A model generated the notes under the pieces. It saw nothing but the letters and a program-made list of their open reading frames with translations. It had not been told where the DNA came from and did not search any database. The position numbers and the translations under genes are program-made. From Lachnospiraceae bacterium (GTDB lineage Bacteria > Bacillota_A > Clostridia > Lachnospirales > Lachnospiraceae): a DNA stretch of 64,000 nucleotides. The first letter of the stretch is position 1. Each line of letters starts with the position of its first letter. The DNA lies in the NCBI GenBank assembly GCA_017416505.1, contig JAFQCI010000060.1, positions 27,762 to 91,761 of the forward strand, in the 5' to 3' direction. Of the stretch, positions 1,833-32,574 are shown piece by piece.

Positions 1833-1932
1833 GGTTTAATGAAACTAAGTTGCAAAATTACCTTAATTTGATTATACTATGATTAAAACTTCGAATGAAA
1901 AATTATCTAACAAATGGAAAAGGAGGTGCAAG

Positions 1933-2394
1933 GTGGACAATAATATTGTATATCATGGTAGTAACATGATTGTGGCAGAGCCTAGGATTGTGATAAATGG
2001 ACATTATAAAGACTTTGGATATGGCTTTTATTGTACCAATATCAAGAAACAGGCAAAGCGTTGGGCATTGACTAGGCGTGGAGCTTCTGTTGTAAATTCT
2101 TATGTATATACTTCGAATGAAAATTTAAAAGTATGCATTTTTTCTGAAATGACAGAGGAATGGTTGCAATTTGTAGTAGATTGTCGTCGGGGGATCGAAC
2201 ACAGTTTTGATATTGTAGAAGGCCCCATGGCAGATGACCAAATATGGGATTATGTAGAAGATTACATGGGAGGAAACATTACGAAAGCGGCCTTTTGGGA
2301 GTTGGTAAAATTCAAGTATCCAACGCATCAAATAGTATTTTGCACAGAAGACGCATTGCAAACATTGCATTTTGAAGGGAGTGAAACATTATGA
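1933..2394 (+). CDS. DUF3990 family protein (ADP-ribosyltransferase-like)
   Basis: A 153-residue protein with the DUF3990 hallmarks: an N-terminal YHGSN (about residue 7), then DFGYGFYCTN followed by KKQAKRWAL. In this family these motifs resemble the H-Y/F-E class of ADP-ribosyltransferase folds, so a NAD-using toxin-like activity is plausible but not shown. I chose the GTG at 1933 because AAGGAGG sits at 1920-1926, six bases upstream; an upstream ATG would put this site inside the gene. Its stop overlaps the next start (ATGA), indicating translational coupling to a probable partner protein. Confidence 0.7.
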   Translation: MDNNIVYHGSNMIVAEPRIVINGHYKDFGYGFYCTNIKKQAKRWALTRRGASVVNSYVYTSNENLKVCIFSEMTEEWLQFVVDCRRGIEHSFDIVEGPMADDQIWDYVEDYMGGNITKAAFWELVKFKYPTHQIVFCTEDALQTLHFEGSETL

Positions 2395-2861
2395 TAAATA
2401 TGTACTTTCCGGATGAAGAAATAAAAAGAAATGATTTATATTTTGTATGTTATATGATTGAACGTGTGGCAAGAAGGCTCAAGCAGAAGAATGTATATGT
2501 GGTAAATGCTATTGGCAAAGAAGGATTGAAGCATTTACTTAGTGTAGCCAATGTATTACATGCAGAAAATCCATTAGATGTAGAGGATGACTGGATAAAA
2601 GAATATTCTTTGGTGCAAGGAGATTTTGATATTACAGTAGTGAACAAAGAATTGGTGGATGAAGTGCCAAGTTTTACACAAATGGGTAAGGTGTATCAGA
2701 GGTTGATTATTGACACAATGCAACCAAAAGAAGATTATGTAGATGGTATAGTTCGGGTATATAATGATGAAATTTGTGACATTATAGATAATTATAATTG
2801 CAGTGCTTATTATGAGCCATCTTATGTAATTGCTCGTGCATATCAGGCTGGTGGATTTTAG
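2391..2861 (+). CDS. Conserved hypothetical protein coupled to DUF3990
   Basis: A 156-residue soluble protein starting inside the stop codon of the DUF3990 gene (ATGA overlap). The N-terminal 70 residues (YFVCYMIERVARRLKQ ... NVLHAENPLDVEDDWIKEY) loosely resemble DUF3791 proteins, small helical partners often encoded beside DUF3990. The C-terminal half, from about residue 80, looks like a second domain. By position it is a candidate antitoxin or regulatory partner of the DUF3990 protein. The family match was judged by eye and is weak; the coupling is seen directly. Confidence 0.55.
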   Translation: MINMYFPDEEIKRNDLYFVCYMIERVARRLKQKNVYVVNAIGKEGLKHLLSVANVLHAENPLDVEDDWIKEYSLVQGDFDITVVNKELVDEVPSFTQMGKVYQRLIIDTMQPKEDYVDGIVRVYNDEICDIIDNYNCSAYYEPSYVIARAYQAGGF

Positions 2862-5160: not shown

Positions 5161-5493
5161 ATGAAACAATGTCAGTCTTTTCAGTGTCCGGTAGAAGCCA
5201 CACTTCAACTGATTGGTGGAAAATATAAATCACTTATTTTGTGGCATCTAATAGGAAAAACACTTAGATTTAATGAATTAAGCAAACTTATTACATCAGC
5301 TACTCCCAAAACGCTCACGCAACAGCTAAGGGAATTAGAAAATGATGGTCTGATTCACAGAATGGTGTACCCTGTTGTTCCCCCAAAGGTGGAATATTCA
5401 CTTACCAATTTTGGAGAAAGCATTATTCCTGTTCTTGAATCTATGTGTTCATGGGGAATGAAATATTTAGAAGAAAAAAAGAGTGGGACATAA
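5161..5493 (+). CDS. HxlR family regulator
   Basis: A 110-residue winged-helix protein: [22 protein letters not shown], then [10 protein letters not shown], the recognition helix region [17 protein letters not shown], and the wing PPKVEYSLT. Cys9, in the CPV motif, matches the redox- or electrophile-sensing cysteine of this family. AGGAGG lies 10 bases before the ATG; an out-of-frame ATG in between stops after two codons. It is divergent from the nitroreductase gene and followed by a shortened DUF4317 gene 14 bases downstream. Confidence 0.85.
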
Positions 5494-6438: not shown

Positions 6439-6449
6439 GAGGGATGATA

Positions 6450-7142
6450 ATGGCTAAGGATACTACAAACAAGGGTTTTTGGGAGAAGTTTGCAAAGATA
6501 TACACCTTATTTATGTCGAAAAATGATAGGGCTTATGAGAAAATCTGTGATGTACTGAAGAATTACATAGATAAGGATAAGAAGGTATTGGAATTAGCTT
6601 GTGGGACAGGACAGATTACATTTCGTATGGCTGAAAAATCACTTTTTTGGGAAGCAACGGACTATTCCGAAAATATGGTGAAAGAAGCTGTGAAAATGAA
6701 TGGAGATAAAAATAAGAGTGAAAAAATTTCCTTCCTTGTTCAAGACGCAACGAATCTGACATATGAAGATGAAACCTTTGATGTGGTTGTAATAGCGAAT
6801 GCCCTGCATATTATGCCGGAACCCAAGAAAGCTCTTGAGGAAATACATAGAGTTCTTAAAAAAGATGGAATACTTTTCGCACCAACATTTGTATACGAAA
6901 AAGGGTATTCAAAGTTACTGATTTGGCTTATGGAAAAGGTTGGATTTAAAACCTATCATAAGTGGCAGAAAAACGAATATACGGAATATATCAGCAAAGC
7001 AGGATTTCATGTTATGGATTCGATATTAGTAAAAGGAAATCCACTTTCGGAATGTATTTTGATTGGAAGAAAAAAGAGTACATTTGACGTTTCGCAATTA
7101 TCTAAAAGTAAAAAGTTAGGAAAGGAAAGGGTAAGAATATGA
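6450..7142 (+). CDS. Class I SAM-dependent methyltransferase
   Basis: A 230-residue Methyltransf_11-type enzyme. Motif I is VLELACGTGQITFRMA (about residues 46-60), motif II is the acidic ATDYSENM, and motif post-III is FDVVVIANALHIM followed by ALEEIHRVLKKDGIL. GGAGGG lies six bases before the chosen ATG. The last 20 residues are a basic tail beyond the usual fold end. It overlaps the next methyltransferase start by ATGA. A decayed copy of its 3' part occurs at 18694-18870. The substrate is unknown; such small enzymes act on diverse metabolites. Confidence 0.85.
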   Translation: MAKDTTNKGFWEKFAKIYTLFMSKNDRAYEKICDVLKNYIDKDKKVLELACGTGQITFRMAEKSLFWEATDYSENMVKEAVKMNGDKNKSEKISFLVQDATNLTYEDETFDVVVIANALHIMPEPKKALEEIHRVLKKDGILFAPTFVYEKGYSKLLIWLMEKVGFKTYHKWQKNEYTEYISKAGFHVMDSILVKGNPLSECILIGRKKSTFDVSQLSKSKKLGKERVRI

Positions 7143-7753
7143 GTAAGTTTGGTGATTATTGGGCATCTCAGTGTGGGAATCCCAGAGGAGTGGTTGGCAG
7201 CATTATGACTTGGGCTATGAATCGTGTAAACAATGTGATGTATCATGGCATGATAGAACATATGAAACTATCAGAAGATGTAAAAATTCTTGATGTGGGT
7301 TTTGGAAATGGATATTTAGAAAAATTAATTTACAAAAAAGTGAAATGTTCCATTTATGGAATTGATATATCAAAAGATATGGTGAAATCCGCTTCCGCAA
7401 AGAATAAAAAAGGGATTGCAAATGGAGATATTCATCTTTCCGTAGGAGATTGTTGCAACTTTACATTTGAAAATAATTCATTTGATATCGTCGCTACTAT
7501 GAATACCATTTATTTCTGGGATGATACGATACAGGGATTACAGGAAATATACAGAGTCTTAAGTGAGCATGGTGTTTTCTATAATGCAGTTCTTACCAAA
7601 GAAAGTCTGGATAAAGTGTTCTATACCAAAAACGGATTTAAAAAATTTGACCAAAAAGAATATGTAGAAATGGGGAAACGGGTTGGATTTAAAAACATTT
7701 CTTTTAAAAATTTAGGGGATAAATATGGTTTACTTGTGATTTATGAAAAGTAA
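7139..7753 (+). CDS. Class I SAM-dependent methyltransferase
   Basis: A 204-residue methyltransferase with motif I ILDVGFGNGYLEKLI (about residues 50-64), acidic motif II YGIDISKDMV, motif IV FDIVATMNTIYFW and a post-motif LQEIYRVLSEHGVFY. It is translationally coupled to the previous methyltransferase (ATGA overlap) yet differs from it in sequence, so this is an operon of two distinct enzymes rather than a recent duplication. An imperfect terminator follows. No transporter or regulator gene is linked that would reveal the substrate. Confidence 0.85.
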   Translation: MSKFGDYWASQCGNPRGVVGSIMTWAMNRVNNVMYHGMIEHMKLSEDVKILDVGFGNGYLEKLIYKKVKCSIYGIDISKDMVKSASAKNKKGIANGDIHLSVGDCCNFTFENNSFDIVATMNTIYFWDDTIQGLQEIYRVLSEHGVFYNAVLTKESLDKVFYTKNGFKKFDQKEYVEMGKRVGFKNISFKNLGDKYGLLVIYEK

Positions 7754-7754
7754 T

Positions 7755-7796
7755 AATGCTTGCAATAGAGGAAAAGAATATTGAGATGCATTTTTT
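7755..7796 (+). terminator. Terminator after methyltransferase operon
   Basis: Interrupted stem (AATGC and CAATA pair with TATTG and TGCATT, small bulges) followed by TTTTTT. It separates the methyltransferases from the ToxIN locus. Confidence 0.55.
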
Positions 7797-7834
7797 ATAA
7801 CAATTAAATACAAATGGATGGAAGAAAAAATCTA

Positions 7835-7863
7835 TTGCTATTTTTAGAAATTCTGCATATAAT
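7835..7863 (+). promoter_or_regulatory. Promoter of the ToxI-like RNA
   Basis: TTGCTA at 7835-7840, 17 bases, perfect TATAAT at 7858-7863. Transcription would begin near 7870, just before the perfect dyad AGATAGA-TAT-TCTATCT (7871-7887), and run into the tandem repeats. Confidence 0.75.
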
Positions 7864-7910
7864 GTATTATAGATAGATATTCTATCTTCCAAACAACTCT
7901 TGTTATTTAG

Positions 7911-8040
7911 GTGGAGAGTTTAACAACCGGAGAGTTCCTGCCGTTTAAGTGGAAGGTTTAACAACCGGAGAGTTCCTGCCGTTTAAGTGGAAGGTTTAAC
8001 AACCGGAGAGCTCCTGCCGTTTAAGTGGAGAGTTTTAACA
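7911..8040 (+). repeat. 38-bp tandem repeat, 3.4 copies
   Basis: Unit begins GTGGAAGGTTTAACAACC and ends CCTGCCGTTTAA. Copies 2 and 3 differ by one base (GTTCC against GCTCC); copy 1 differs at GAGAG against GAAGG; copy 4 stops after 16 bases. Direct adjacency without spacers excludes CRISPR. It is the repeat region of the RNA antitoxin. Confidence 0.95.
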
Positions 8041-8047
8041 GAAAGAG

Positions 8048-8070
8048 GCATCCATATGGATGCTTTTTTT
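8048..8070 (+). terminator. Attenuating terminator between antitoxin and toxin
   Basis: GCATCC at 8048-8053, 4-base loop, GGATGC at 8058-8063, then seven T. A short stem in this place is typical of ToxIN loci, where it sets the excess of antitoxin RNA over toxin mRNA. Confidence 0.85.
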
Positions 8071-8088
8071 ACATATGAGGGAGGTTTT

Positions 8089-8625
8089 ATGCAGTTATAC
8101 AGTATTTCAGATGAGTATATAAACTATCTAAGAAAGAAGTTTCCAAGAGTGTATTCCAATAAAGAAAATACCCGTGTGCATACAAGAAAATATTTAGGTA
8201 CAGTTATTGAAATTGAGTCGCATAAGTACTATATTCCATTATCGTCTCCCCAAAACAATCATGATTACATTATGGTGAATGGAAAAAAGACAATACGAAA
8301 AGATTCACTTATTGTTATGCGAATTGTCTCAGGGAAGGGCGATGGTATGGAATTAAAAGGAACGTTGCAGATTGGTACGATGATTCCGGTTCCAGATACA
8401 GAAATTGAACTGTATGATGTTGAGAATGAACCAGACCAAGCATATAAAGACCTTGTTAATGAAGAAATTATTTATATCCGTAAGCATGAGAAAGCCATCG
8501 TTAAAAATGCGAAGGTCTTATATAGTAAAAGGAAAGCTAAGGATGAAAACAGAGTTGTACAAAATTGCTTGGATTTTATAGCATTAGAAGCAGAATGTGA
8601 TAAATGGGAAGTAAAAACCACTTGA
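8089..8625 (+). CDS. toxN: ToxN/AbiQ family type III toxin endoribonuclease
   Basis: A 178-residue protein matching the ToxN/AbiQ family: N-terminal MQLYSISDEYINYLRKKFPRV, the strands YLGTVIEIESHKYYIPLSSP, then GTLQIGTMIPVPDTEIELYDV, and a helical C-terminus with YIRKHEKAIVKNAKVLY. Family members are sequence-specific RNases related in fold to Kid/MazF and inhibited by their repeat RNA; many abort phage infection. I chose the ATG at 8089 with AGGGAGG at 8078-8084; an upstream frame starting at 7987 runs through the antitoxin repeat and terminator and is spurious. Confidence 0.85.
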   Translation: MQLYSISDEYINYLRKKFPRVYSNKENTRVHTRKYLGTVIEIESHKYYIPLSSPQNNHDYIMVNGKKTIRKDSLIVMRIVSGKGDGMELKGTLQIGTMIPVPDTEIELYDVENEPDQAYKDLVNEEIIYIRKHEKAIVKNAKVLYSKRKAKDENRVVQNCLDFIALEAECDKWEVKTT

Positions 8626-12782: not shown

Positions 12783-12978
12783 TATTATGATGTTGGGGGC
12801 AAAAGGTATTTTGACCCCATGATACCTACGAATTGCTCCGCACTTTGTGCTCCCGCAATTCTAAAACATTCGAAATCCGCCCTATTCGGGCTACTTTCTC
12901 ATGTTTTGCGGGTCCCAAAGTCATGTTTTTTTCATGCGAGCATGAAAAACATGACCTTTTGACCCTGGTATCATATTA
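12783..12978 (+). mobile_element. Repeat A copy 1 (MITE-like)
   Basis: About 196 bp and non-coding. The two ends are imperfect inverted repeats of about 25 bp (TATTATGAT...GGCAAAAGGT at the left, the complement of TAATATGATACC...GTCAAAAGG at the right). Internal hairpins are formed by CAAAAGGTATTTTG and by TCATGTTTTT...AAAAACATGA. Copy 2 at 18985 is nearly identical. It occupies most of the 443-base gap before the phosphorelay genes; the rest of that gap holds a terminator and no gene. Confidence 0.8.
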
Positions 12979-17141: not shown

Positions 17142-17582
17142 ATGGCAGAAGAAACAAAGGAGAGAATTGAAAGTGAGCTAGAGGTTAAAGCATATATTTA
17201 GAATTTGAGGTTTGCTCTTGATAATGGCGCAAAGATTACATTTCAGGCAAAAAGGCTTGTTGATGAAGAAAGAAAAGAGGAATATACAAATCGATATACA
17301 GTAAATACACTATTTCCTGATGAGAATCCTGAAGAAGCTTTAAAAAGAGAAATAAGAACATTAACAGTGGAAGAATATATGAGAACGGTGAAAGATCTTA
17401 GGTTTCCGAAGAAAAGTGAGATGAGAGAATTTGGTAGGGGATATAACAGTACAGAGAATGTGTATATTAAGATAAGAGTAGAAGTGTTGGGAATGTATGG
17501 AAGTGCAACTGTGTTTATAATGTCATTTCATTTTGCAGAGAGAGCGTTTACATCAGATATGTTTCCATATAGGAATAATTAG
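17142..17582 (+). pseudogene. MqsR-like toxin gene broken by an amber codon
   Basis: One frame from ATG 17142 to the TAA ending at 17582 is interrupted by a single TAG at 17199-17201 (codon 20). Residues on both sides look like one protein: VKAYI, stop, NLRFALDNG. The later part has LTVEEYMRTVKDL and VYIKIRVEV...FIMSFHF, the helix and strand pattern of MqsR/HigB-type mRNA interferases. There is no ribosome site at the ATG, and downstream TTG 17205 also lacks one. It lies 12 bases before a Panacea antitoxin gene, as toxins of this class do. It is probably inactive. The toxin family assignment is inference by pattern and position. Confidence 0.6.
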
Positions 17583-17594
17583 GGAGGTGTTTCC

Positions 17595-18617
17595 ATGAAA
17601 ATATTATACAGGGAAAATCGTTTATGCACTTGTTGTATGGAAGAGCACGAAGTAAAAACGGTTCACGTAATGGAACATGCCAGTTTAAAGAATGTATGTG
17701 TGGAGTATAAGGCGACTTATTTTTATTGCGATGTTGCACAAAAACTGTATATGGATGAATACCAGATGAGGGAGAATGATATCACTCTCAAGGATGCATA
17801 TAGAAAGGCGCAGGGACTTTTGACATCAGTAGAAATGATTGAAATTCGATCAAAATATGGAATGAGTCAGAAAGATCTTTCTATTCTCTTAGGATGGGGT
17901 GGTAAAACGATTACTAGATATGAGACTCATCAAGTGCAGGATAAAGCGCACGATACTATTCTAAAAAAGCTTGACCAGGATCCGGAATGGTTCTTACATT
18001 TACTACACGGGTCAAAGAACAACTTATCTGCAGAAGCATATAGAAAGTATTTTGATATTGCTACCGTTCTTTATGAGAAGGAACAGGATTTATATCTAAG
18101 GAAAGCTATTGAAGCAAAATATGCAAGATTTCAAGGAAATCAGATGTTTCACGGAAATACAGAACTATCCTTAGATAAGGTGGTAGATGTAATTCGTTAT
18201 TTTGCTACATCTGTTAAAGTTACCAATCTATATATGGCGAAACTTATGAGGTTGATGTGGTATTCTGATGCTCTTTCTTATAAGAAAAGAGAGCGGGCAA
18301 TTACCGGACTGGTTTATCAGGCATTACCCATGGGAACTGTGCCTATCGGGCATGATTCTATCATAGACTTAAAAGATGTACCATGTGAGGAAGTGGATGT
18401 GGGTGAAACATACGCATATCATTTCAACTTGATGGAAGAAACAGAATATCCAGCATTATCTGAAGAAGACAAAGATATCTTAAATATTGTCATAGATAAA
18501 CTTGGAAAAATGAGCAAATATGAGATAGTGAATTTTATGAATAAGGAACAGGCATGTGTAGAAACCGCCTCGAGAGATATTATTTTATTTAAATATGCAG
18601 AAAGTTTGCAGATATAA
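17595..18617 (+). CDS. Panacea (SocA-like) domain antitoxin with HTH
   Basis: A 340-residue protein. The N-terminus is an MqsA/YgiT-like zinc-finger remnant (CTCC at about 11-14, YCDVA near 45). Next comes an HTH of the MqsA type (TSVEMIEIRSKYGMSQKDLSILLGWGGKTITRYE, about 78-112), then a C-terminal Panacea/SocA-like domain (KVTNLYMAKLMRLMWYSDALSYKKRERAITGLVYQALPMGTVP, about 208-250). Panacea proteins are antitoxins that neutralise diverse toxins, with the HTH providing autoregulation. GGGAGGTG precedes the ATG. The partner gene upstream carries a nonsense codon, so this antitoxin may be an orphan. Confidence 0.8.
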   Translation: MKILYRENRLCTCCMEEHEVKTVHVMEHASLKNVCVEYKATYFYCDVAQKLYMDEYQMRENDITLKDAYRKAQGLLTSVEMIEIRSKYGMSQKDLSILLGWGGKTITRYETHQVQDKAHDTILKKLDQDPEWFLHLLHGSKNNLSAEAYRKYFDIATVLYEKEQDLYLRKAIEAKYARFQGNQMFHGNTELSLDKVVDVIRYFATSVKVTNLYMAKLMRLMWYSDALSYKKRERAITGLVYQALPMGTVPIGHDSIIDLKDVPCEEVDVGETYAYHFNLMEETEYPALSEEDKDILNIVIDKLGKMSKYEIVNFMNKEQACVETASRDIILFKYAESLQI

Positions 18618-18693
18618 ACGTGAGTACTCTATTACAGAATACTTTTATGTCAGCGATATGGGACGGGATTTGTTGTCGTAAGAAAGTAGCCCT

Positions 18694-18870
18694 TTTTATG
18701 AAAAAGAGCTACTCAAAGTTATTGATTTGGTTTATGGAAAAGATTGGATTTAAAACCTATCATAAGTGGCAGAAAAACGAATATACGGAATATGTCTGCC
18801 AGGAAGGTTTTCATGTTGTTGATTCGATATTGGTAAAAGGAAATCCACTTTCGGAATTACCTGTCAGTTG
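18694..18870 (+). pseudogene. Remnant of a duplicated methyltransferase
   Basis: About 170 bases closely match positions 6896-7062, the 3' part of the first methyltransferase (KLLIWLMEKVGFKTYHKWQ there, KLLIWFMEKIGFKTYHKWQ here). The catalytic SAM-binding half is absent, and after GNPLSE the frame drifts into a repeat C copy. No start or ribosome site fits. It is a decayed partial duplicate, or the remnant of a second locus of the same kind. Confidence 0.75.
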
Positions 18871-18896
18871 CTTAGATTCTTTTAAGTTAATTTCAT

Positions 18897-18984
18897 ATGA
18901 AATATTATAGTTTCGCAATTAGCCATCAGTTGTCCGGTTTCTTTTGAGTTACTGCCATATGAAATTTATACTTTCACAATTACT
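18897..18984. repeat. Two repeat C copies
   Basis: AAATATTATAGTTTCGCAATTA (with one interruption removed, at about 18898-18920) and a diverged ATATGAAATTTATACTTTCACAATTA-like copy at about 18957-18982 lie 60 bases apart between the pseudogene and repeat A copy 2. Confidence 0.45.
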
Positions 18985-19179
18985 TATTATGATGTTGGGG
19001 TCAAAAGGTATTTTGACCCCATGATACCTACGAATTGCTCCGCACTTTGTGCTCCCGCAATTCTAAAACATTTGAAATCCGCCCTATTCGGGCTACTTTC
19101 TCATGTTTTGCGGGTCCCAAAGTCATGTTTTTTCATGCGAGCATGAAAAACATGACCTTTTGACCATGGTATCTTATTA
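18985..19179 (+). mobile_element. Repeat A copy 2 (MITE-like)
   Basis: 195 bp, nearly identical to the copy at 12783. The left hairpin is perfect here (GGGGTCAAAA, 4-base loop, TTTTGACCCC) and the right hairpin is TCATGTTTTTTCATGC with its near-perfect complement. The right edge lies 6 bases from the stop codon of the minus-strand methyltransferase, so its hairpins may act as that gene's terminator. Confidence 0.8.
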
Positions 19180-30732: not shown

Positions 30733-30790
30733 CAGTGTGAAAGAATCTGGATTTTCAAGCATGACTGCTACAAATGATAAGATGAAAATT

Positions 30791-30889
30791 GAAAATTCGT
30801 GAAAAAGTGAATATAAACATTTTGAAAATTCGTTAAATAATGAATATAAACATTTTGAAAATTCGTGAATAAATGAATGTAAACATTTA
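30791..30889. repeat. 33-bp tandem repeat, three copies
   Basis: GAAAATTCGT begins copies at 30791, 30824 and 30857, each followed by GAATATAAACATTTT or close variants, exactly 33 bp apart. It lies between the Fic gene and its terminator. The minus strand would read an 11-residue periodic peptide (NVYIHLFTNFQ), but this frame lacks a ribosome site. Confidence 0.9.
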
Positions 30890-32444: not shown

Positions 32445-32548
32445 ATTTTATCATAGTCTTTTCGTATTATTTAAAAGATAGATTTTATCAAGTCTTTTTC
32501 GTGTTATTCAAAAGATAGATTTTATCAAAGTCTTTTCATATTATTTTA
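32445..32548 (-). repeat. 37-bp tandem repeat in the trkA-trkH gap
   Basis: ATTTTATCA recurs at 32445, 32482 and 32519, exactly 37 bp apart, each followed by AGTC, CTTTT and a TTATT/AAAGATAGA stretch; the third copy is partial. Read on the minus strand, each unit offers a TAAAAT -10-like box with an upstream TTGAAT or TTTAAA. The array may provide iterated promoters for trkH. Confidence 0.8.
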
Positions 32549-32574
32549 AATATTTATTTCCTAATTTTTCTTTC

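What the first reader, a model, noticed from the sequence alone, without database searches (positions are those of the whole stretch)
7835..8625. Complete type III (ToxIN-like) toxin-antitoxin locus with a 38-bp RNA repeat
Seen directly: a consensus promoter, three and a half 38-bp tandem repeats, a short terminator and a 178-residue gene. Established: the gene matches the ToxN/AbiQ family, whose members are RNases held in check by their repeat RNA and often block phage. Inference: the array is processed to 38-nt antitoxins by this toxin. The repeat sequence itself is unlike the ToxI examples I know, so the pair may be a new specificity. A 17-bp dyad near the predicted RNA 5' end is an extra feature worth folding.
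Basis: partly seen in the sequence, partly recalled or inferred. Interest (0 to 1): 0.85.

Follow-up and report, generated by a model that had tools for sequence, protein, structure and literature searches.

The report
ToxIN-type RNA antitoxin with altered toxin
This is a bacterial toxin-antitoxin locus of the known ToxIN kind, in which repeated RNA knots normally hold an RNA-cutting toxin in check; here the RNA part looks intact while the toxin lacks a lysine that a well-studied relative needs to be toxic, and the same RNA part turns up elsewhere without a toxin.

Summary
Window 7835-8625 holds a promoter-like site, a 38-nt repeat array, a terminator and a 178-residue ToxN/AbiQ toxin gene: a type III toxin-antitoxin locus of the ToxIN subfamily. 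Three corrections. (1) The array has three clean units plus a diverged full-length first unit. (2) The repeat is not alien: its pseudoknot core matches a Pectobacterium plasmid ToxI in register, and stem 2 covaries within and between arrays. (3) The 17-nt dyad is a hairpin at the predicted RNA 5' end, present in 12 of 15 loci examined. The unexpected result is in the toxin. Of 72 columns conserved at 97% or more in 120 close sequences it departs at one: Gln where the other 119 have Lys55, a residue whose loss abolishes toxicity in E. coli ToxN. In an array-first census, 6 of 19 array sites had an intact toxin of this type, 6 a broken or partly unrecognisable one and 7 none. One toxin-free unit, identical over 45 nt to this array, lies in a conjugative element. 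Identity as ToxIN is near certain; impairment is likely but untested.

The parts
7835..7863 (+). promoter-like -35/-10 (TTGCTA, 17 nt, TATAAT)
   Evidence: similar placement in relatives, (by eye)
7871..7887 (+). hairpin at the predicted RNA 5' end, 7 pairs, 3-nt loop
   Evidence: hairpin in 12 of 15 loci examined
7889..7926 (+). unit 0: diverged full-length ToxI unit (12 of 38 positions differ, 11 of them transitions)
7927..7964 (+). ToxI unit 1
7965..8002 (+). ToxI unit 2
8003..8040 (+). ToxI unit 3; its second stem differs from units 1-2 on both sides
8042..8070 (+). intrinsic terminator between array and toxin gene
8089..8625 (+). toxN, 178 aa; ribosome-binding AGGGAGG at 8078-8084 (read by eye); Gln at residue 55 where close relatives have Lys

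Best explanation
A type III toxin-antitoxin locus of the ToxIN subfamily. One promoter drives an RNA that begins with a hairpin and carries a diverged and three clean ToxI units; most transcripts stop at the terminator and some read through into toxN (inferred from relatives). Each clean unit can fold as an H-type pseudoknot (supported by covariation) that binds ToxN and blocks its active site (inferred from solved relatives), and in relatives ToxN cuts the array into single units. In this copy the toxin lacks the catalytic lysine 55, so it is most likely weakly active or inactive, and the locus is probably a defused ToxIN whose antitoxin half is intact.
For: Identity: Pfam ToxN_toxin E 3.3e-38, PADLOC AbiQ E 1.9e-41, PDB 7d8o, 2xd0, 4glk, 4ato by sequence, AlphaFold2 model (best pLDDT 88.9) nearest to 4ato, 2xd0, 7d8o, 4glk with TM 0.70-0.76. 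RNA: stem 2 fully paired in 34 of 34 units of 15 loci, 0 of 10,000 shuffles as good; covariation score higher than 500 of 500 shuffles and than every slid version in both unit-length classes. Toxin: Lys55 in 119 of 120 listed homologues, the exception being P0001, the window's own protein; the window's only departure among 72 columns conserved at 97% or more; Lys55Ala abolishes E. coli ToxN toxicity (PMC8860590, passages), and ToxN(K55A) is called nuclease-inactive (PMC10853763, passages). Lineage: 13 of 19 array sites have a broken, partly unrecognisable or missing toxin.
Against: Lys55 is not universal in the wider family: among 49 locus sequences, near and far and some of them the same place twice, it is K in 39, V in 5, E in 3, D in 1 and a gap in 1. 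A review says that in AbiQ only Ser51Leu removed RNase activity (PMC5086642, section read). The rest of the protein shows no decay. The published change is to alanine, not glutamine. I could read the codon in one sequence only; P0001 stands for 32 sequences on 7 contigs whose residue 55 I have not seen.
Confidence: 0.6

Rival explanations
1. A fully working ToxIN locus in which Gln55 is tolerated; the toxin cuts RNA and its own array into units as in relatives.
For: Array and terminator intact, promoter-like site present; protein otherwise conserved; other residues occur at this position in distant members; AbiQ lost activity only on Ser51Leu.
Against: Lys55 in the other 119 close homologues; Lys55Ala kills toxicity in E. 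coli ToxN; the usual Lys57 is also absent (K in 114 of 120).
Confidence: 0.3
2. The Gln55 codon is a sequencing or assembly error and the real toxin has Lys.
For: The codon lies in a run of C and A; no second DNA sequence of the locus could be read.
Against: The frame is intact, and residues 55-57 all differ from the usual ones, which one base error would not explain.
Confidence: 0.07
3. A CptIN-type or other type III system rather than ToxIN.
For: CptIN is known from Eubacterium rectale (PMC4627078, start of abstract).
Against: Fold match to CptN 4rmo is poor (TM 0.35, E 0.021) against 0.70-0.76 for ToxN/AbiQ; the PDB sequence search lists ToxN/AbiQ chains and no CptN; pseudoknot core in ToxI register.
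Confidence: 0.02

Closest known systems
ToxIN of Pectobacterium atrosepticum (2xd0; plasmid pPA21A, L038)
   Same: toxin homology and fold; tandem repeats (36-37 nt in L038) with the same core in register; array before toxin
   Different: 32.7% toxin identity for L038; 13 units matched in L038 against 3+1 here; Lys where the window has Gln55; its leader was not examined for a hairpin
ToxIN of E. coli (7d8o; PMC8860590, passages)
   Same: fold, Ser53, pseudoknot type; the paper's conserved G5 and A6 have counterparts in units 1-3 (my mapping)
   Different: Lys33 and Thr52 are Arg and Ser here, Lys55 is Gln here; the repeat tails lack its GAAAU cleavage site
AbiQ of Lactococcus (4glk)
   Same: fold; serine at the Thr52-type position (review)
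   Different: TM-aligned identity 24%; its repeat was not compared here
pseudo-ToxI of phage PhiTE (PMC3475682, abstract part and passages)
   Same: ToxI-like RNA units without a toxin gene, as in relatives L109, L085, L094
   Different: phage-borne and tested; the relatives found here lie in a conjugative element or in bacterial contigs and are untested

Membership tests
ToxIN (type III TA) | toxin homologous to ToxN | tested here: met
ToxIN (type III TA) | fold of the ToxN branch | tested here: met
   predicted model
ToxIN (type III TA) | tandem nucleotide repeats just upstream of the toxin | tested here: met
ToxIN (type III TA) | Rho-independent terminator between repeats and toxin | tested here: met
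ToxIN (type III TA) | single promoter upstream of the array | tested here: inconclusive
   consensus match and similar place in relatives only
ToxIN (type III TA) | antitoxin units fold as H-type pseudoknots | tested here: met
   covariation of stem 2; no structure solved; stem 1 has only two dependable pairs
ToxIN (type III TA) | active-site residues Lys/Arg33, Thr/Ser52, Ser53, Lys55 (not among the locus criteria given in PMC5086642) | tested here: not met
   Arg33, Ser52, Ser53 present; residue 55 is Gln
ToxIN (type III TA) | toxin cleaves the array into monomers and is neutralised by them | not testable with these tools
   needs expression
ToxIN (type III TA) | abortive infection of phage | not testable with these tools
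   needs phage assay
CptIN | CptN-like fold | tested here: not met
   4rmo TM 0.35, E 0.021

The most novel reading that the evidence does not exclude
In this ToxI lineage it is the RNA antitoxin that is kept, not the toxin. Toxin-free ToxI units circulate as small anti-ToxN RNAs, one of them inside a conjugative element and identical over 45 nt to the window's array. Loci such as the window's, with an intact array and a disarmed toxin, serve as RNA shields (anti-addiction or anti-defence) against related active ToxN.
Probability: 0.25. Interest if true: 0.72.

Novelty: new member of a known kind. Interest (0 to 1): 0.45.

Why it matters
ToxIN is a well-studied phage-defence module, but how such loci die or are disarmed is little studied as far as I know (recall). 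A natural toxin changed at its catalytic lysine beside an intact RNA array, together with a toxin-free copy of the same RNA in a conjugative element, makes a testable case that RNA antitoxins outlive their toxins and may be used against them, extending the phage PhiTE mimic to bacterial mobile elements.

Tried and rejected
Rfam: no ToxI match in 7700-8200 at E<=1; the only hit was a microRNA match far under its cut-off. NCBIfam: no match. Viral contigs: no relative of the toxin by tblastn; the repeat pattern matched 14 stretches, one of which (L078) also held a ToxN-like frame. Phage records: 3 of 50,697 hold a distant ToxN. Plasmid records: 180 of 72,556, all under 60% identity. The window's other tandem repeats at 30789-30888 and 32445-32550 were read; I saw no ToxN-like gene beside them in the ORF list (by eye). 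Unit 0 as a working pseudoknot: 6 of 7 pairs kept, 3 doubly compensated, but random substitutions of the same kinds keep as many pairs in 32% of trials and as many double compensations in 3%; with positions held fixed the figures are 42% and 50%, so the pairing evidence is weak. That it is a diverged unit at all rests on exact 38-nt spacing and on 11 of 12 differences being transitions (tested after the fact). Minimum-energy folding, which cannot show pseudoknots, found nothing unusual in unit 0, 1 or 3 (z -0.27, 0.93, -0.88). A mixed-length unit alignment (A3) misplaced gaps and was not used. probably picked a wrong -10 for L010 and L078, so those two leaders are not informative. Paper search was useless because 'ToxIN' matches 'toxin'.

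Full report
What is there. The tandem repeat is real: 7906-8040, period 38, score 226. Ahead of it lies a TTGCTA-17-TATAAT promoter-like site at 7835-7863, and after it a hairpin with a run of T that folds at -16.1 kcal/mol (z -6.39). The gene at 8089-8625 has 178 codons plus stop, after AGGGAGG. A database copy (P0001) starts 11 codons earlier, but that start lies inside the terminator, and the 11 homologues aligned begin at the Met of 8089.

The toxin. Pfam ToxN_toxin E 3.3e-38 over residues 1-173; PADLOC AbiQ E 1.9e-41; PDB matches to 7d8o, 2xd0, 4glk and 4ato, E 4e-15 to 1e-10 (a fifth, unrelated, at E 0.73). The AlphaFold2 model (32-row alignment A2; pLDDT 88.9 for the best of five models, the other four 44-54) matches 4ato, 2xd0, 7d8o and 4glk at TM 0.70-0.76, and CptN 4rmo at 0.35. 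414 of 427 candidate proteins match at E<=0.001; the best 120 are listed and used below.

The RNA. Read as GG-A-GAG-[4]-UG-CC-...-AGU-[4], the units have the H-type pseudoknot order stem 1, stem 2, stem 1, loop, stem 2. In units 1-2 stem 2 is UUCC/GGAA; in unit 3 it is CUCC/GGAG. Of 58 locus stretches scanned, 19 held such units. I dropped L058 (same place as L043) and L050 (one unit, of the same kind as L046). In the remaining 17 loci, 47 of 49 units pair stem 2 fully, counting wobble; the two that do not are both in L046, and the dropped L050 unit would be a third. With L038 and L046 set aside, 34 of 34 units in 15 loci pair by Watson-Crick, against a mean of 10.5 in 10,000 shuffles with none as good; 8 loci hold more than one version of the stem, each matched on both sides (in L024 these include two neighbouring arrays). 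The expression fixes the GG and CC of stem 1 and one G of stem 2, so it cannot test stem 1. For pair counting I took 31 distinct units (30 plus unit 0), dropped two of odd length (one each of L038 and L086) and kept two gapless classes: 13 units (unit 0 included) with covariation score 0.388 against 0.209 in shuffles, and 16 units with 0.352 against 0.164; 0 of 500 shuffles were as high and every slide scored lower. Two measures were not impressive: further pair types (316 and 382 of 500 shuffles as high) and, in the second class, pairs changed on both sides (35 of 500). Stem 2 was paired in 100% of cells. The outermost stem 1 pair (2-17) was unpaired in 9 of 13 and 10 of 16 units, so stem 1 has only two dependable pairs in this lineage. 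The Pectobacterium plasmid array (L038, 13 units matched) shares the core in register.

Unit 0. Between the hairpin and unit 1 lie 38 nt in register, 26 identical to unit 1; 11 of 12 differences are transitions. Stem 1 GG/CC is AA/UU there and one stem 2 pair is swapped, but chance reaches this often enough that pairing is unproven, and the position that I map to the conserved G5 is changed. Folded alone it prefers a simple hairpin. I take it as a decayed unit whose tail still gives unit 1 a normal upstream junction (inference).

The 5' hairpin. Leaders between -10 and the first unit hold a hairpin of at least 5 pairs in 12 of 15 loci; L038, L046, L050 and L058 were not examined. In 10 of these 12, at most 12 of 500 letter shuffles fold as well; the exceptions are L043 (23) and L001 (83). 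L009 and L013 have the same leader. Stems differ in sequence (AGATAG/CTATCT, GATGG/CCATC, GAAAACAC/GTGTTTTC), several with a GAAA loop, so structure rather than sequence is kept. L011 has none, and L010 and L078 could not be judged. I infer a cap that protects the antitoxin RNA or fixes the 5' end of the first unit. The listing (10 of 16 papers shown, titles and abstract starts only) names no such leader, which is not proof that it is unreported.

The changed lysine. In E. coli ToxN, Lys33, Thr52, Ser53 and Lys55 form the active site, and Lys33Ala, Thr52Val and Lys55Ala among others lose toxicity (PMC8860590, passages). The window has Arg33, Ser52 and Ser53, as do all 120 listed homologues, but Gln55. 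Position 55 is Lys in 119 of 120; the exception P0001 is this very protein. Across 72 columns conserved at 97% or more this is the window's only departure; of 120 sequences (window in place of P0001) 67 have no departure, 34 have one (the window among them) and 19 have two to four. So the protein is not decaying at large; what changed is a catalytic position. Against this: 9 of 49 locus sequences have another residue there and 1 a gap, and AbiQ lost activity only on Ser51Leu (PMC5086642, section read). Toxin-first, 56 of 397 genomes of the family of L001 hold a protein match at E<=0.001.

Array-first census. The core pattern was sought without regard to toxins: 14 of 397 genomes of the family of L001 (15 sites; reversed-pattern control zero in every row) and 4 of 37 in the genus of L002 (4 sites; at least one genome without a match is in both sets). 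Of these 19 sites, 6 have an intact ToxN of this type (L002, L006, L007, L010, L011, L012). Six have a broken or partly unrecognisable one: L009 two stops; L013 frame change with residues missing; L028 only residues 1-16 and 62-108; L043 one-base frame change; L014 and L044 match only to residue 104 and about 95, within open frames of 134 and 195 codons. Seven have none detectable: L085, L086, L087, L091, L094 and L109 (no tblastn hit at E<=1 in 2.9-3.0 kb, save for L109 two hits at E 0.045 and 0.21, the better being the repeat itself translated), and L089, where a second array with a 32% identical toxin follows. Some single frame changes may be assembly errors. Since losing the toxin is harmless and losing the antitoxin is not, a surplus of arrays is expected on simple grounds; it does not prove a use.

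Two sites go further. L109 is one unit, identical over 45 of 45 nt to window 7921-7965, with a promoter-like AT-rich stretch just before it (by eye) and a strong terminator after it (-22.5 kcal/mol). Around it lie a T4SS coupling protein (PF02534, TraG-D_C) and a MobA/MobL relaxase read as two separate ORFs. In these 10.5 kb the best ToxN-like hit is again the repeat itself (E 0.048), then E 0.23 and 0.88. L086 has three ToxI-like units of two kinds within about 320 nt, in a contig with a ParA-type ATPase and no tblastn ToxN hit at E<=1 in 6.7 kb; the loose expression used there also gives chance matches, and the third unit was not tested for pairing. Phage PhiTE is known to escape ToxIN by expanding pseudo-ToxI repeats (PMC3475682, part of abstract and passages), so toxin-free ToxI as a weapon has a precedent in phage. 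The listings of one search (10 of 10 papers) and 74 (20 of 67) show no title on toxin-free ToxI in bacterial elements; this is a narrow check of an open-licence library.

Verdict. Ordinary as a locus (ToxIN, new member); unusual in carrying Gln at the catalytic lysine beside an intact, structure-conserving antitoxin array; suggestive, with its relatives, of an antitoxin that persists without its toxin.

Noticed in passing
L109 1488-1532; L113 about 5180-5225, - strand: Toxin-free ToxI unit identical over 45 nt to the window array, with terminator, in a conjugative element next to a MobA relaxase read as two ORFs.
   Followed up: partly
L086 / L114: Cluster of at least three ToxI-like units of two kinds with no detectable toxin, near a ParA-type ATPase; a HEPN protein lies on the other side.
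   Followed up: partly
L089 (same place as L024): A window-type array without its toxin stands directly before a different ToxIN locus (32% toxin) with its own array.
   Followed up: partly
window 1879-2861: Pair matching PADLOC phage-defence candidates PDC-M10A (DUF3990) and PDC-M10B, about 5 kb from ToxIN.
   Followed up: no
window 17205-18617: SocA/Panacea-domain antitoxin preceded by a small ORF without Pfam match: possible second toxin-antitoxin pair.
   Followed up: no
window 12820-12973 and 19022-19174, - strand: Two Clostridiales-1 RNAs (RF01699) 6 kb apart.
   Followed up: no
window 18620-18910: ORF repeating the C-terminal part of the methyltransferase at 6444-7142: partial duplication (read by eye).
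   Followed up: no
window 30789-30888 and 32445-32550: Intergenic tandem repeats of 33 and 37 bp beside what look like Trk potassium uptake genes (names by recall).
   Followed up: no
L039: Fusobacterium phage phiFN37 carries a ToxN with Glu at the Lys55 position.
   Followed up: no
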